Positions 8,093 to 14,649 of a DNA stretch of 21,650 bases are shown in pieces. Position 1 is the first letter of the stretch; each line of letters begins with the position of its first letter. Source of the stretch: a virus; IMG/VR virus record IMGVR_UViG_3300046006_005878, positions 1-21,650 of that record; one strand, given 5' to 3'. Made by a program: the position numbers and the translations under genes. Below the pieces are notes generated by a model. The model searched no databases. It was given only the letters and a program-made list of their open reading frames with translations, and was not told where the DNA came from.

Positions 8093-9226
8093 CTATGGAA
8101 CAAAGCGACTTAACGGTGTCATCGGATCCCACAAGGCCGCCCATGGGACCGATACCAGCTCGTCTGCCTTGGCGCTATTTTCAGCATAGCTTGAAAAGGA
8201 CCGGTCAACCGGAACTTGCGCGTCTGTCCAAAGCGTGACTGAAAACCACTGCGTCGTTGGATCTCGGTCTTCCAACGGCAGGTTCGTCTCCCTATCCAGC
8301 GCTACTTGGCTTAGGGATATCTTGCAGAAGGTCTCATTCACATGTGGAGCTGGGTAGCCCCGAATGACGAAGTTCACGAAGTAACCCGAACTCCAGCTCC
8401 AGACTCGGTCATCAAGGGCGATTGGCTTTCCCGACCCATCCTGCCCAGTGTCAGCGAAAGTCTTGAACGCCTCGTCGACGTTATCGATCCCTGAGAACTG
8501 TCCGTCAGTCATGATGACCGCTGTATCGCAGACGTTTCTCAGGCCCCCCCAAGTGATTTCCGGAAACGGCACTTGAGCGAGGCTGACCTGAGCCAGACTT
8601 GCCTTTCCTATCGTGTCGATCGCGTAGATTAAATCTGGCGGTGTTGCGATCGTCCGGGCGAATAGGAATTCGGACATGCCCCTGGCGCCATGTTCCACAT
8701 TCTGCGTGAGTGCAAAGAGGCGGGAAGTGTCGATCAGGGCAAGAGCGTAGGCGTCACGCACATTGGCTGACGAGTGCGCGCCGCCGTCTGGCAGGACAAG
8801 ACGCGGCGCGTGAAATCCCAGCCATGCACCAGGCTCGATCACTGCGTTCTTCGATCTGATTGCCCCGGTTCCGACGACCAGCGATCCACCAAGGAACGCA
8901 ATGGCACAGGCCGACAGACAGTTGTCGCCATTTCTGACATATGTTGCGACCGAATCCTTGTTCCAGATGACGTGAAACATCCTAAGGCCTTCGACGAAAT
9001 CTCCGCCGGGACTGTTCAGGCACAGCCGCGTCCCCGATGCGGTGGCAGCAATCGCCGCTTCGATCCTGTCTGCGTCTCCCGCCTCGATACTCCCCGAAAA
9101 GTAATAGTCACATTGGGCAATGTCTGGGCTTGTTCTGAGGTCTCCTGCGTATGCTGCAGCCGCCATCGACAGGAAAGCTGACAGACAGGGTATCAGGCTT
9201 CCACTGATCTTTACATTGGACGGCAT
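8093..9226 (-). CDS. Secreted ClpP/crotonase-fold-like protein (cargo gene)
   Basis: 377-aa protein encoded against the direction of the phage operon. Residues 1-27 form a signal peptide (K6, hydrophobic stretch, cleavage likely after AYA). The mature protein carries the pattern of periplasmic ClpP-like proteins: LCLNSPGGD (68-76) as the oxyanion strand, DNCLSACAIAFLGG (101-114) with S105 as possible nucleophile, and GFHAP (137-141) with H139 as possible general base. The last 200 residues match nothing I recognise. A GGAGAG lies 5 nt before the ATG on the minus strand. Two 60-nt stretches counted by hand give 47-50% GC, against 68% in the upstream gene, which points to separate acquisition. 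It is not an expected virion component; protease activity is unproven. A phage-exclusion or host-conversion role is possible. Confidence 0.8.
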   Translation of the reverse strand: MPSNVKISGSLIPCLSAFLSMAAAAYAGDLRTSPDIAQCDYYFSGSIEAGDADRIEAAIAATASGTRLCLNSPGGDFVEGLRMFHVIWNKDSVATYVRNGDNCLSACAIAFLGGSLVVGTGAIRSKNAVIEPGAWLGFHAPRLVLPDGGAHSSANVRDAYALALIDTSRLFALTQNVEHGARGMSEFLFARTIATPPDLIYAIDTIGKASLAQVSLAQVPFPEITWGGLRNVCDTAVIMTDGQFSGIDNVDEAFKTFADTGQDGSGKPIALDDRVWSWSSGYFVNFVIRGYPAPHVNETFCKISLSQVALDRETNLPLEDRDPTTQWFSVTLWTDAQVPVDRSFSSYAENSAKADELVSVPWAALWDPMTPLSRFVP

Positions 9227-9801: not shown

Positions 9802-10020
9802 TCAGTCGATGTTCCTTTCGTGCTCCCGGTCAGGATGGTCCCCAAGCCACCACAGAAGAAAGATTGCGAAAAAGGGCGAGCAGAAGAGGCTGACCATGAT
9901 CCAGTTGAAGGCACTGCGTCCTCTTGCTTCTGCCATTTCGGCGGGCAACAGGATCAGGAGCCACAGGGTAAGATAAAGGGCGGCCAGCCCGAACATCAGG
10001 AAGAAGAAACCTTCGATCAT
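9802..10020 (-). CDS. Small two-helix membrane protein (cargo gene)
   Basis: 72-aa protein with two predicted membrane segments, at about residues 5-27 (FFFLMFGLAALYLTLWLLILL) and 40-59 (WIMVSLFCSPFFAIFLLWWL). A short charged loop (AEMAEARGRSA) separates them, and the C-terminal tail is hydrophilic (GDHPDREHERNID). I do not recognise the family. AGGGAG lies about 9 nt upstream of the ATG on the minus strand. It follows the nuclease gene by 43 bp on the same strand, so the two are probably one transcript. One 60-nt stretch counted by hand is 52% GC, lower than the structural genes. Small membrane proteins in this setting often alter the host envelope or exclude other phages, but that is only a guess here. 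Confidence 0.65.
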   Translation of the reverse strand: MIEGFFFLMFGLAALYLTLWLLILLPAEMAEARGRSAFNWIMVSLFCSPFFAIFLLWWLGDHPDREHERNID

Positions 10021-10063: not shown

Positions 10064-10504
10064 TCAGCAGGTGCCGTAGTACCCGCTCGAATACCGGCAA
10101 TACTCGGTGGCAGCCCCTGAGCGGATCATCTCGGCCGCGATGTCGCGCCCGTCTGGCAGAAAGCACTGCCCGACCAGACGTCCGTACCGGTCAATGTCCA
10201 GAACGTTGCATATGAGGGTTTCGCCGGAGATCAGGCTGCTCAGCGTGGCGGTGGCAGTGGAGCCCCCGCTCTGATCCCACTCTGGGGCATCGAGTCCCCA
10301 GACACGGATCCGGCGGGACTCGCCACTCAAGGTGAAGGTGTCGCCGTCGAGAACCTTGCTGACCCGCGCCTCCAGCTCGCCTGCCTGCTGCGCTTGCGCA
10401 TCGGGCTGGCCGATGAGGGCCGCCGCAATCGCGAATGCCACCAACAAAAATGCCACACGACGCAACGGACGCGTGAAGCGGCGAATGAGAAACCTTCCAA
10501 TCAT
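10064..10504 (-). CDS. Secreted thermonuclease-family (SNase-like) nuclease (cargo gene)
   Basis: 146-aa staphylococcal-nuclease-fold enzyme, expected to cut DNA or RNA with calcium outside the cytoplasm. Residues 1 to about 38 are an arginine-rich signal peptide (LRRVAFLLVAFAIAAALIG, cleavage near AQA). The catalytic set is complete when aligned to the Staphylococcus enzyme. D55 in VLDGDTF, R67 and D72 in RIRVWGLDAPE, E75, and R109 in DRYGR correspond to D21, R35, D40, E43 and R87. The mature part has four cysteines (99, 114, 136, 146), fitting disulfides in the periplasm. It is encoded against the operon between the tail terminator and tail tube genes. GC is about 67% in one 60-nt stretch, like the phage genes. 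It is not a known tail part; a role in degrading incoming phage DNA is a guess. Confidence 0.88.
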   Translation of the reverse strand: MIGRFLIRRFTRPLRRVAFLLVAFAIAAALIGQPDAQAQQAGELEARVSKVLDGDTFTLSGESRRIRVWGLDAPEWDQSGGSTATATLSSLISGETLICNVLDIDRYGRLVGQCFLPDGRDIAAEMIRSGAATEYCRYSSGYYGTC

Positions 10505-10579: not shown

Positions 10580-11518
10580 ATGGCACGTGCGCAAGGCGCG
10601 CGGGCGCAGATGGCGCTTGCGTTCGAGACCACATACGGCACCCCGCCTGCGGGTGGCTTCACGAAGATGCCCTTCGCCAGCACTTCGCTCGGATCGGAAC
10701 AGCCGCTTTTGAACAGCGAACTTCTGGGCGAAGGCCGCGATCCCCTGGCCCCGATCAAGGACGCGGTGACGGCGGACGGCGATGTCATGGTGCCGATCGA
10801 TGCCGAGGCCTTCGGCTTCTGGCTGAAGGCGGGTTTTGGCAATCCGGTCACCACGGGCGCTGGGCCATATACGCACGAGTTTCGCTCGGGTGGCTGGACC
10901 TTGCCGTCGATGTCGATCGAGACGGCGATGCCGGAAGTGCCGCGCTTTGCGATGTATTCCGGCTGCATGCTGGATCAACTCAGCTGGCAGGTGCAGCGCG
11001 CAGGGTTGCTCACGGCGACCGCCCGGCTGGTGGCGCAGGGCGAGACGATTGCTGGCACCACCCTGGCTGGCACGCCTGCAGACCTGGAGTTGCGGCGCTT
11101 CGGCCACTTCAACGGTGCGATCAGCCGCAACGGTATTGCTCTTGGCAATGTGGTGTCAGCCGAGATCACCTATGCCAACAACATCGACCGGATCGAGACC
11201 ATCCGCAGCGACGGCAAGATCGACGGGGCGGATCCTGGACTGGCCGCACTGACTGGTCGGATCGAGGTCCGCTTCGCCGACAGCACGCTGGTAACGCAGG
11301 CGATCAACGGCGATCCCTGCGAGATCACCTTCGCCTATGTCCTGCCCTCGGGCGAAAGCTTCACGTTCACCGCCCATGCCGTCTACCTGCCGCGCCCCCG
11401 GATCGAGATCTCCGGGCCGCAGGGCGTGCAGGCCAGCTTTGACTGGCAGGCGGCCCGGGCCGAGACGTCCGGCAGGATGTGCACCGCCACCCTCATCAAC
11501 AGCATTGTGAGTTACTGA
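10580..11518 (+). CDS. Tail tube protein
   Basis: Main building block of the non-contractile tail tube, at the position of lambda gpV (246 aa; here 312 aa). The opening (ARAQGARAQMALAFETTYGTPP) is the usual start of the larger siphophage tube proteins. The body is beta rich with alternating segments such as SWQVQRAGLLTATARLVAQGE and SAEITYANNIDRIETIRSDG. The latter, with its KIDGADPG continuation, is characteristic of this tube family. The last strands (ESFTFTAHAVYLPRPRIEI, ASFDWQAARAE) would close the ring. The ribosome binding site is AAAGGAA, 8 nt before the ATG. The next gene begins 2 nt after its stop. Confidence 0.88.
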   Translation: MARAQGARAQMALAFETTYGTPPAGGFTKMPFASTSLGSEQPLLNSELLGEGRDPLAPIKDAVTADGDVMVPIDAEAFGFWLKAGFGNPVTTGAGPYTHEFRSGGWTLPSMSIETAMPEVPRFAMYSGCMLDQLSWQVQRAGLLTATARLVAQGETIAGTTLAGTPADLELRRFGHFNGAISRNGIALGNVVSAEITYANNIDRIETIRSDGKIDGADPGLAALTGRIEVRFADSTLVTQAINGDPCEITFAYVLPSGESFTFTAHAVYLPRPRIEISGPQGVQASFDWQAARAETSGRMCTATLINSIVSY

Positions 11519-11520
11519 CC

Positions 11521-11976
11521 ATGATCCGCCTGAACCTGACCGCCGCGCCCCAATGGCTGGAGCTCGTCCCCGGCCTGCGCCTGCTGGTCGGCCCGCTGAC
11601 CACTGCACTGATGGTCTCCGCCCGCGCTGACCTTTCTATCGAGACGCTTCCTGAAGGAGCCTCGCAAGAGGAGCTGGCCCTTGCCATGGCAAAGGCCGTC
11701 GCCCGCCGCGCGGTGCTGGATTGGGAGGGGGTGGGCGATGATGCAGGCAACATCGTGCCCGTCACCCCCGAAGGGATCGACGCCCTTCTGGAAATCTGGC
11801 CGGTCTTCGAGGCGTTCCAGACCAAATATGTCGCACGCGGCCTGATCCTGGACGCGGAAAAAAACGTCTCCGCGCCCTTGCCGACTGGTCCTTCGGCGGG
11901 GGCGACCGCTACTGCGCGGCCTGCACACCCTGCGAGGGCCGCGGGGGCATCTGCCCCGACTGCCCCGCAAGACTGA
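11521..11976 (+). CDS. Tail assembly chaperone, short form (lambda gpG-like)
   Basis: Probable chaperone that coats the tape measure protein during tail assembly. It is 151 aa (lambda gpG is 140 aa). The first 115 residues look like a structured, mostly helical domain (beta-rich start LTAAPQWLELVPGLRLLVGP, then EEELALAMAKAVARRAVLDW-type helices and ALLEIWPVFEAFQTKYVARG). The remaining 36 residues, after the slippery site, are low-complexity Ala/Pro/Thr sequence. That is expected if the zero frame is merely the unshifted tail. The ATG at 11521 is 2 nt after the tail tube stop; an upstream in-frame start inside the tube gene (11479) is less likely. Position between tail tube and tape measure gives strong support. 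Confidence 0.85.
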   Translation: MIRLNLTAAPQWLELVPGLRLLVGPLTTALMVSARADLSIETLPEGASQEELALAMAKAVARRAVLDWEGVGDDAGNIVPVTPEGIDALLEIWPVFEAFQTKYVARGLILDAEKNVSAPLPTGPSAGATATARPAHPARAAGASAPTAPQD

Positions 11977-12206
11977 ACCGCCCGCAAACGCTGGACGGCT
12001 GGCAGGTCTGGGATCTGGTCGGCCGTCTAGGTGGGCAGGTGCGCGTGATCCCCGGCGCGGTGCTGGGCTGGGACATGGGCGCGGCACTGGCGATGGCCAA
12101 GGCGCTCGGGATCGACACCCTGATCGCCGCCGAACTGCTGCCAGAGATCGAGGCGGTGATGGTGCGCAAGTTGAACGAACAGATGGAAGGAAACCGCGAT
12201 GGCTGA
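11521..12206 (+). CDS. Tail assembly chaperone, -1 frameshift product (lambda gpG-T-like)
   Basis: Predicted fusion made when ribosomes slip back one base at 11859-11865. Residues 1-115 come from the zero frame, then reading resumes at 11865 and ends at TGA 12204-12206, giving 228 aa. The added domain has a five-cysteine cluster (C132, C135, C138, C145, C148, pattern CxxCxxCx6CxxC). A well-formed helical end follows, with GWQVWDLVGRLGG, LGWDMGAALAMAKALGI and PEIEAVMVRKLNEQM. The -1 frame is closed upstream by TGA at 11739. It has no ATG, GTG or TTG before 12039, downstream of the cysteines, so ordinary initiation cannot easily make this domain. In lambda the T part binds the tape measure protein. 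It overlaps the tape measure start by 8 bp. Confidence 0.75.
11859..11865 (+). promoter_or_regulatory. Programmed -1 ribosomal frameshift site (A_AAA_AAC)
   Basis: Seven A residues (11858-11864) followed by C create the heptamer A AAA AAC in the exact phase required: third base of GAA, then AAA, then AAC. This is one of the best-known slippery sequences for tandem -1 slippage. It sits in the chaperone gene where nearly all long-tailed phages carry such a signal. Confidence 0.8.
11873..11904 (+). promoter_or_regulatory. Stimulatory stem-loop for the frameshift
   Basis: Bases 11873-11884 can pair with 11893-11904 to form a continuous 12-bp stem (two G-U wobbles, the rest Watson-Crick) around an 8-nt loop. 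The stem begins 7 nt after the slippery heptamer, within the usual 5-9 nt spacer for -1 frameshift stimulators. Pairing was worked out by hand. Confidence 0.6.
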
Positions 12207-14649
12207 AAAACGCATCTCAGTCCGCCTTGTCGCGGAAGGCGGCCGCAAGGTCCGGGCAGAACTTGAAGGCATCGGAGCGGCTGGCACGCGCGGATTTGGC
12301 CGCCTGTCCTCAGAGATGGAACTGGCCAACGCCCGCCTCGGCAGCTTTGCCCGCAAAGCCGGGATTGCACTGGCGGCGGTGACGGTTGCGGCCGCAGCGG
12401 CTGGCGTGGCGATGGTCCGCTCGGGGCTCAACGTCATCGGCGCACAGGCCGACATGGCGGCCTCGCTCCGGACGACGGTCGAAAGCCTGCAGGTGCTGAC
12501 ATGGGCTGGCGAGTTGGCCGGGGTCTCGATGGGCGAGATCGAACAGGCGACCAAGAAGCTGACCACGCGGCTGTCGGAGGCCGCCGCCGGATCAGGATCG
12601 GCCGTCGGGGCCTTGCAGCGGCTGAACCTGACTGCGGCGGAACTGCAGGCGCTGCCGCTCGACCAGCGCATCGTCGCCATTCAGGAAGCCCTGAACCGGT
12701 TTGTGCCGGAAGCCGAACGCGCGGCCGTGGCATCCGATCTCTTCGGCGACAAGGCGGCGCTGGCGTTCTTGCGGATTGATCCGGCCACGCTGCGCGAAGC
12801 GGCGCAAGATGTGCGCGACTTCGGAGTGGCAGTAAGCGCTGCCGATGCGACGCAGATCGAACGCACCGGCGATGCTATCGCCAAGCTGAGCCTGATCTGG
12901 CTCGGGCTGACCAACCGTTTGACCGCCGCCGTCGCCCCGGCGCTGGAAGCCGTGGCGAACGCGCTGGCCGACATGGCCCGCGGCACCGGGCCCATCGGCG
13001 GCGCGATCAGTGCCGTCTTCGACAACCTCGCGCGGCTCGGCACCTATGCCGCGACCTTCGCTGCCTTCCTGGCCGGACGCTGGGTGGCAGGCCTGGCCAT
13101 TGCCGCCCTGTCGGTGCGGGGCCTCGCGACAGCGCTGGTCATCATGCGCGCGGCGCTGATCCGGACCGGCATCGGCGCGCTGATCGTGGGCGCAGGCGAG
13201 TTGGTCTATCAGGTCTCGCAGCTGGTGGCCCGGGTTGGCGGCCTGGGTGAAGCGTTCCGCCTGCTGGCCGATCTGGCATCGGAAGTGTGGTCGCGCATCG
13301 GCCTCGCGCTCGATGCGGCCTTTGCCACCATGACCGCTGGCTGGGAGGAACTGAAAGCTGCCGGGCTGTCGGCGATCGAAGGCACCATCGCGGGCGTGGT
13401 CAGCTTCGGCGACCGGACGGCGGCCATCTTCCAGGGGGCTTATGATGCGGCAGTGGCGATCTGGGGCAGTCTGCCCGGTGCCATCGGTGACTTTGCCTTC
13501 CAGGCCGCGAACGGTCTGATCTCCGGCGTCGAGGCGATGCTGAACGGTGTCGTCACGCGCATCAACAATTTCATCAACGGCTTGAACGCGGCGTTGGCGC
13601 TCCTGCCCGAATGGGCGACAGGGGAAGGCGGGGTGCGGATCGGCACACTCGATCCTGTCGAACTGGCACGCATCGGCAACCCGTTCGAGGGGGCGGCAAC
13701 GGCTGCAGGCACGGCTGCGGCCGAGGCCTTCTCGAACGCCCTCGCAGGCACCTACCTCACCGCGCCAGATCTCGGCCTCGGTGTCATGGCGGACGATGCC
13801 CGGGCCACGGCTGCGGGCTACCGCGAGGCGGCAGGCATGCTGGCCGATGCCGCCGGTCGACCGCTTGCCAGTTGGCAGGCGCTGAAGGATGCCGTGACCG
13901 GTGCCGGGGACGAGGGCGAAGATGCCCTGGACCGTGCCACGGATACGGCCGACGCCCTTGGCGAAAGCTTTGACGACGCTGGCCGCGCGGCGGGAGGTGC
14001 CGGGGCAGCGGCGAAGACCGCGGCCGAAGAGGCGGCGGCGGGCTGGGCGCAGGTCACCCAGTCCCTGGCGGACTATGCCAAAGGTGCGATGGATTGGGGC
14101 AAGGGGCTGGGCGAGACGCTGGTCTCGGCCTTCACCTCGGCCGAGAGCGCCTTCCGGAAGTTTGTCACCACCGGCAAGTTCGACTTCAAATCGCTGATCT
14201 CCTCGATCCTCGCCGATCTCGCGACGCTGGCGTTCAAGAACTCTGTGCTCGGGCCCCTGGCCGACTGGCTCTCAAAAGGGCTGGGCGGGATCTTCGCCCC
14301 GGTGAAGCACGCGGGCGGGATGGTCGGCGCCCCCGGTCCCGGTCGCATGGTGCCCGCGCTGGCCTTTGTGGGTGCGCCCCGGATGCATTCCGGGGGCTGG
14401 GCGGGGCTTCGTCCTGACGAGGTGCCCGCGATCCTGCAGCGGGGCGAACGGGTGCTGTCGCGGCGCGAGGTTGCGAGTGGCATGGGCGGAGGCGGCACCA
14501 GCGGCGTGTCGATCAGCATTGATGCCCGCGGCGCACAATCGGGTGTGGCGGAAGAGATCGATGCCAGGCTGCGCGCGGCGATCCCGGAGATTGCGCGTCT
14601 GGCCAAGGCCAGCGTGGCCGATGGTCGACGGCGTGGCCATGCGCTGTGA
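12199..14649 (+). CDS. Tail tape measure protein (lambda gpH-like)
   Basis: Sets tail length, fills the tube during assembly, and is ejected to help DNA enter the cell. It is 816 aa (lambda gpH is 853 aa), so a tail of similar length is expected. The N-terminus is helical (RISVRLVAEGGRKVRAELEG), with a hydrophobic stretch at about 54-74. The lambda-family N-terminal domain includes ATKKLTTRLSEAAAGSGSA. A second hydrophobic zone lies at about residues 280-335. The C-terminal tape-measure domain is at about 610-700 (DYAKGAMDWGKGLGETLVSA, then FDFKSLISSILADLATLAFK). The end has HSGGWAGLRPDEVPAIL and GERVLSRREV, typical of this family. Ribosome binding site GGAAGGAA lies about 6 nt before the ATG and inside the frameshift ORF, implying coupling. 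Confidence 0.95.
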   Translation: MAEKRISVRLVAEGGRKVRAELEGIGAAGTRGFGRLSSEMELANARLGSFARKAGIALAAVTVAAAAAGVAMVRSGLNVIGAQADMAASLRTTVESLQVLTWAGELAGVSMGEIEQATKKLTTRLSEAAAGSGSAVGALQRLNLTAAELQALPLDQRIVAIQEALNRFVPEAERAAVASDLFGDKAALAFLRIDPATLREAAQDVRDFGVAVSAADATQIERTGDAIAKLSLIWLGLTNRLTAAVAPALEAVANALADMARGTGPIGGAISAVFDNLARLGTYAATFAAFLAGRWVAGLAIAALSVRGLATALVIMRAALIRTGIGALIVGAGELVYQVSQLVARVGGLGEAFRLLADLASEVWSRIGLALDAAFATMTAGWEELKAAGLSAIEGTIAGVVSFGDRTAAIFQGAYDAAVAIWGSLPGAIGDFAFQAANGLISGVEAMLNGVVTRINNFINGLNAALALLPEWATGEGGVRIGTLDPVELARIGNPFEGAATAAGTAAAEAFSNALAGTYLTAPDLGLGVMADDARATAAGYREAAGMLADAAGRPLASWQALKDAVTGAGDEGEDALDRATDTADALGESFDDAGRAAGGAGAAAKTAAEEAAAGWAQVTQSLADYAKGAMDWGKGLGETLVSAFTSAESAFRKFVTTGKFDFKSLISSILADLATLAFKNSVLGPLADWLSKGLGGIFAPVKHAGGMVGAPGPGRMVPALAFVGAPRMHSGGWAGLRPDEVPAILQRGERVLSRREVASGMGGGGTSGVSISIDARGAQSGVAEEIDARLRAAIPEIARLAKASVADGRRRGHAL

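What the first reader, a model, noticed from the sequence alone, without database searches (positions are those of the whole stretch)
11859..11904. Complete -1 frameshift signal in the tail chaperone gene
A_AAA_AAC lies in correct phase (GAA AAA AAC). A 7-nt spacer leads to a potential 12-bp stem with an 8-nt loop. The -1 frame is closed upstream by TGA at 11739 and has no ATG, GTG or TTG until 12039. It is then open to 12206 with well-formed protein. Programmed frameshifting at this locus is established for many long-tailed phages (lambda G/GT). This site has slippery run, spacer and stem together and could be overlooked because gene callers would stop at 11976.
Basis: partly seen in the sequence, partly recalled or inferred. 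Interest (0 to 1): 0.75.

Follow-up and report, generated by a model that had tools for sequence, protein, structure and literature searches.

The report
Frameshift site in phage tail chaperone
The phage carries a well-known kind of signal, a slippery run of A's plus an RNA hairpin that should make some ribosomes step back one base, so that one gene gives a short and a long form of the helper protein that builds the tail; the signal is real and strongly conserved, but of an already known kind.

Summary
A_AAA_AAC (11859-11865) is in phase at the end of the tail assembly chaperone domain, followed by a 7-nt spacer and a 12-bp hairpin. The -1 frame has no start codon before 12039, encodes a conserved 113-aa domain and ends at 12206, overlapping the tape-measure gene.

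About 300 related loci strongly support programmed -1 frameshifting. Of 214 distinct junctions, 211 keep a canonical heptamer at the same place (A_AAA_AAC, G_GGA_AAC or A_AAA_AAA). In some relatives a stop codon close to one side pins the shift to the heptamer. The hairpin is more stable than protein and codon usage require (mean z -2.5; control windows about 0). Homologues in Rhodobacter capsulatus phages are already deposited as joined frameshift genes. It is a new member of the lambda G/GT kind.

Small additions: Pfam DUF7697 and phrog_11212 match only the C-terminal half of the frameshift domain; the uncovered half carries a conserved CxxC...CxxC motif; one relative (Roseisalinus) has A8 and a single-frame fusion, natural or a sequencing error. 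There are no expression data, so whether and how often shifting occurs is inferred.

The parts
11521..11976 (+). Zero-frame gene: tail assembly chaperone, G-like product (151 aa)
   Evidence: phrog_313 tail assembly chaperone, E 1.2e-25; lies between tail tube (10580-11518, Phage_tube_2) and tape measure (12199-14649)
11859..11865 (+). Slippery heptamer A_AAA_AAC, zero frame GAA AAA AAC
   Evidence: Read directly; canonical heptamer at the same place in 211 of 214 distinct junctions
11866..11872 (+). 7-nt spacer between heptamer and stem
   Evidence: Read directly
11873..11904 (+). 12-bp hairpin with 8-nt loop (arms 11873-11884 and 11893-11904), presumed stimulator
   Evidence: MFE -23.9; codon-constrained z mean -2.5 over 92 representatives; pair counts
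11865..12206 (+). -1 frame T-like domain (113 aa) with stop at 12204-12206; DUF7697 / phrog_11212 match only its C-terminal half
   Evidence: DUF7697 E 7.9e-29 at aa 61-111; phrog_11212 E 2.9e-31 at aa 59-112; no start codon before 12039; -1 frame conservation

Best explanation
A programmed -1 ribosomal frameshift site of the lambda G/GT kind. Most ribosomes translate the chaperone gene to the stop at 11976 (G-like product). A minority, delayed by the hairpin with AAA in the P site and AAC in the A site, slip back one base on A_AAA_AAC and continue in the -1 frame to 12206, making a 228-aa G-T fusion. By analogy with lambda, many G and few G-T copies bind the tape measure protein and the T part brings in tail tube subunits. 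Shown here: anatomy, conservation of the slippery site as a class, selection on the hairpin, conservation of the -1 frame domain without a start of its own. Inferred: that shifting occurs and how often, that it is ribosomal, and the roles of the two proteins.
For: Phase, frames, stops and lack of starts. Chaperone family and gene order. 211 of 214 distinct junctions with a canonical heptamer at the same place: A_AAA_AAC 190, G_GGA_AAC 19, A_AAA_AAA 2, i.e. the encoded residues change while the slippery property stays. All 83 representatives with Lys use AAA, against 31% AAA in the upstream domain. Of 93 representatives, 5 have a -1 frame stop 9-12 nt before the junction and 5 a zero-frame stop 4 nt after it. 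Differences fall on -1 frame third positions (27% against 6-7%). Hairpin z -2.5, 16 control windows between -0.66 and 0.38. Homologues deposited as joined genes. Same heptamers reported in the same gene of Caulobacter phages (PMC3556154) and of phage Loki (PMC5313236). A natural A8 relative encodes both domains in one frame.
Against: No expression data. A_AAA_AAC is not the type of bacterial motif found most efficient in E. coli (those let the A-site tRNA re-pair fully, PMC4066793), so efficiency may be low. The zero-frame stop is 109 nt from the heptamer. Relatives of the Methylobacterium type lack this hairpin.
Confidence: 0.95

Rival explanations
1. Transcriptional slippage: RNA polymerase adds or drops A's in the A7 run, and normal translation of the altered mRNAs makes the fusion.
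For: A run of seven A's is present.
Against: 19 distinct relatives have G_GGA_AAC, with no long homopolymer, at the same place. Phase X_XXY_YYZ, spacer and a selected downstream hairpin fit ribosomal shifting.
Confidence: 0.03
2. Two separate proteins: the -1 frame ORF is a gene of its own starting at GTG 12039 or at a later start, as gene callers and DUF7697/phrog_11212 imply.
For: DUF7697 and phrog_11212 begin near that codon; two phage records annotate a short second gene there.
Against: Conservation of the -1 frame begins at the heptamer, about 58 codons before 12039, and includes the cysteine motif. The first possible start in this frame differs among relatives, from about +90 to +198 nt.
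Confidence: 0.015
3. Sequencing error or pseudogene: the two halves are really one frame in this phage.
For: Homopolymers are error-prone; one relative (Roseisalinus antarcticus, L024/L094) has A8 and a single frame.
Against: The same frame relation is found in about 200 distinct loci from isolates and metagenomes, including those with G_GGA_AAC.
Confidence: 0.005

Closest known systems
Tail assembly chaperone genes of Rhodobacter capsulatus phages RcKemmy, RcKvothe and RcKai (GenBank MW677517, OP009275, OP009272)
   Same: Same gene position between tail tube and tape measure; homologous -1 frame domain (about 50% identity); deposited as a zero-frame gene plus a joined two-piece CDS
   Different: Heptamer there is G_GGA_AAC, and the stem pairs CTT with AAG where the window pairs CTT with GGG
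Phage lambda G / GT (tail assembly chaperones gpG and gpGT)
   Same: Minor -1 shift near the end of the gene before the tape measure gene, making a C-terminally extended chaperone (PMC5009743)
   Different: No sequence similarity to lambda was tested; ratio and protein interactions unknown here
Pre-tape-measure chaperones of Caulobacter phages phiCbK (AAAAAAC) and Colossus (GGGAAAC)
   Same: The same two heptamers in the same kind of gene (PMC3556154)
   Different: Protein homology was not compared here
Acinetobacter phage Loki gp12/gp13
   Same: AAAAAAC motif and predicted fusion (PMC5313236); its chaperone is among the best fold matches (E 1.5e-3)
   Different: In Loki the motif is adjacent to the zero-frame stop; here that stop is 109 nt downstream
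Pfam DUF7697 (PF24752) and phrog_11212
   Same: Match aa 59-112 of the -1 frame domain far above cut-off
   Different: Cover only the C-terminal half; neither contains the cysteine-rich half next to the frameshift site

Membership tests
Lambda G/GT-type programmed -1 frameshift in tail assembly chaperone genes | Gene for a tail assembly chaperone directly before the tape measure gene | tested here: met
   phrog_313, E 1.2e-25; tape measure at 12199-14649
Lambda G/GT-type programmed -1 frameshift in tail assembly chaperone genes | Slippery heptamer X_XXY_YYZ in zero-frame phase near the end of the first domain | tested here: met
   A_AAA_AAC 11859-11865, GAA AAA AAC; conserved as a class
Lambda G/GT-type programmed -1 frameshift in tail assembly chaperone genes | Overlapping -1 frame ORF encoding a conserved domain without its own start | tested here: met
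Lambda G/GT-type programmed -1 frameshift in tail assembly chaperone genes | Both products made in a fixed ratio, with the fusion the minor one | not testable with these tools
   Needs proteomics or a reporter
Lambda G/GT-type programmed -1 frameshift in tail assembly chaperone genes | G part binds tape measure, T part binds tail tube protein | not testable with these tools
   Known for lambda (PMC5009743); inferred here
Downstream stem-loop stimulator of -1 frameshifting (not required in every case) | RNA structure starting about 5-8 nt after the heptamer | tested here: met
   Stem starts after 7 nt; folding test z -2.5; 91% of cells paired against 44-56% when slid; usual distance from PMC4066793. 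Stimulation itself not tested
Pfam DUF7697 | Score above the curated cut-off | tested here: met
   99.8 bits against a cut-off of 27, aa 61-111 of the -1 frame domain
Zinc-binding domain (considered) | Paired CxxC motifs that bind metal | tested here: inconclusive
   C17, C20, C30, C33 invariant in 12 diverse sequences and aligned in further relatives; metal binding not testable, no solved relative found

The most novel reading that the evidence does not exclude
The frameshift-encoded half of this chaperone is a metal-binding (probably zinc) domain widespread in alphaproteobacterial prophages, whose N-terminal, cysteine-bearing part is missed by ORF-based annotation, so that DUF7697 and phrog_11212 describe only its truncated end.
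Probability: 0.5. Interest if true: 0.35.

Novelty: new member of a known kind. Interest (0 to 1): 0.27.

Why it matters
It is a well-supported comparative case of a tail chaperone frameshift in alphaproteobacterial prophages: the slippery site changes type while staying slippery, and the hairpin is under measurable selection beyond the protein. It also gives an identity to a family of unknown function (DUF7697): the end of the frameshift product of a tail assembly chaperone. In annotation such genes should be joined at the heptamer; without that the cysteine-rich half is lost.

Tried and rejected
The first pattern search in the record used a badly chosen pattern and gave nothing. NCBIfam gave no meaningful hit for either half. 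A profile search of solved structures with the T-like domain and a fold search in the PDB found nothing significant. A Shine-Dalgarno-like stimulator upstream of the heptamer is not conserved: 77 of 93 representatives have none of the motifs tried. No held paper mentions DUF7697. The three junctions without a standard heptamer were read one by one: L127 has N's at the site; L138 looks like a deletion joining the start of another gene to the T-like domain; L289 is divergent but still has chaperone domain and T-like domain in zero and -1 frames, with T_TTG_GGG or G_GGG_AAG as possible sites. A search for more relatives of L289 found only itself. Separate-gene, sequencing-error and transcriptional-slippage readings were considered and are given as rivals.

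Full report
What is there. The window is a whole 21,650-base virus record with terminase, portal, capsid and tail genes in the usual order. Between the tail tube gene (10580-11518) and the tape measure gene (12199-14649) lies an ORF, 11521-11976, whose product matches phrog_313, tail assembly chaperone (E 1.2e-25). Its codons 113-115 are GAA AAA AAC, so A_AAA_AAC (11859-11865) is in the phase needed for a -1 shift. The -1 frame is closed by TGA at 11739, has no ATG, GTG or TTG until 12039 and runs to TGA 12204-12206. Spacer 7 nt, stem 12 bp, loop 8 nt.

Chance within the record. The A7 run is the only run of seven A's or T's in the record. Only two in-phase X_XXY_YYZ heptamers with Y = A or T and Z not G occur in the predicted genes. 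The hairpin is among the most stable 1.2% of 45-nt windows of the strand.

Relatives. Scans with the -1 frame domain, the chaperone domain and diverged members gave about 300 loci from IMG/VR, GTDB genomes, phages and plasmids. At 211 of 214 distinct junctions a canonical heptamer in the right phase lies at the same place: A_AAA_AAC in 190, G_GGA_AAC in 19, A_AAA_AAA in 2; four or five of the G_GGA_AAC cases are shifted by one codon in the protein alignment only. The encoded pair changes (Lys-Asn, Gly-Asn, Lys-Lys) while the slippery property stays. In all 83 representatives with Lys the codon is AAA, against 31% in the upstream domain. The three exceptions are a locus with N's, a deletion derivative, and the divergent L289, in which the two domains are still in zero and -1 frames. 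The 211 include the A8 locus of Roseisalinus, where the two domains are in one frame. In 5 of 93 representatives a -1 frame stop lies 9-12 nt before the junction, and in 5 others a zero-frame stop lies 4 nt after it; each confines the frame change from one side.

Which frame is selected. In the 60 nt after the junction, among 71 relatives, pairwise differences are 6.8%, 6.4% and 27% at -1 frame first, second and third positions. Amino-acid identity is 87% in the -1 frame and 70% in the zero frame. The overlap is coding mainly in the -1 frame, from the heptamer onward and not from GTG 12039.

Hairpin. Natural sequences fold more stably than versions with the same -1 frame protein and pooled codon usage: mean z -2.5 over 92 representatives, 97% below zero; 16 later windows of the domain have means between -0.66 and 0.38. 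Codon choice shows why. Leu is CTC or CTT in 195 of 209 sequences and CTG in one, though CTG is 60% elsewhere; the second Gly is GGG in 156 of 209, though GGG is 13% elsewhere. Overlapping zero-frame coding could contribute, but that frame is poorly conserved. On 32 diverse sequences 91% of cells pair, against 44-56% when the partner is slid, with changes on both sides at three pairs; those shuffles ignore relatedness, so this is supportive only. In R. capsulatus phages CTT pairs with AAG in place of GGG. Methylobacterium-type relatives lack the hairpin.

What it is. Rhodobacter capsulatus phages encode the homologous pair and are deposited with a joined CDS; the paper on such phages speaks of the programmed frameshift usually found in these genes (PMC8601537). 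AAAAAAC and GGGAAAC are reported at this place in Caulobacter phages (PMC3556154), AAAAAAC in phage Loki (PMC5313236). The lambda mechanism is reviewed in PMC5009743. A model of the natural single-frame relative L024 (mean pLDDT 77; most of the T-like part above 90) has phage tail assembly and tape measure chaperones as its best named matches (E 7e-4 to 2e-3, probability about 1, whole-chain TM-scores low). So this is a new member of a known kind.

What is a little new. DUF7697 and phrog_11212 match only aa 59-112 of the 113-aa domain, as expected of families built from ORFs called from an internal start such as GTG 12039; this origin is an inference. The uncovered half has a conserved CxxC...CxxC motif, which suggests metal binding, untested.

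Limits. No expression data. Efficiency, ribosomal rather than transcriptional origin, and protein roles are inferred. Relatives are not independent; representatives below 88% nucleotide identity were used for the hairpin, frame and codon tests where stated.

Noticed in passing
window 12039-12203: Pfam DUF7697 and phrog_11212 cover only this C-terminal half of the -1 frame domain, starting near GTG 12039; they are probably truncated gene calls of a frameshift product.
   Followed up: partly
window 11913-11966: CxxC...CxxC motif in the -1 frame domain right after the hairpin, conserved among diverse relatives; possible metal site.
   Followed up: partly
window 8093-9226, 9802-10020 and 10064-10504, minus strand: Three minus-strand ORFs inside the plus-strand head-tail gene block: a 377-aa protein with a weak match to a head maturation protease family (phrog_1684, E 2.8e-4), a 72-aa protein (phrog_9201) and a staphylococcal-nuclease-like protein (PF00565). 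They look like inserted cargo genes.
   Followed up: partly
L024 / L094 (Roseisalinus antarcticus CECT 7023), junction at L024 2484-2492: Eight A's instead of seven put both domains in one frame: a natural fixed fusion or a homopolymer miscount.
   Followed up: partly
L076 and L079, 3' end of the -1 frame domain: The -1 frame stays open far beyond the usual stop (to +663 nt) with an unrelated sequence after NEQMEG; the usual tape-measure start seems to be missing.
   Followed up: no
L138 about 1350-1500: The start of what looks like a tail terminator gene stands before the T-like domain with no chaperone domain between, as if by a deletion in a decayed prophage.
   Followed up: partly
L083 (Synechococcus phage Sc-Yong805-1) and L084 (Nostoc phage Nsp-JY21): Two phages recorded from different cyanobacteria are the same at this junction and fall within an otherwise mostly alphaproteobacterial family; the recorded hosts may deserve a check.
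   Followed up: no
L127 (CP059262.1, titled Exiguobacterium profundum MAG): A close relative of this alphaproteobacterial-type prophage gene lies in a record titled as a Firmicute MAG; possibly a mislabelled assembly.
   Followed up: no
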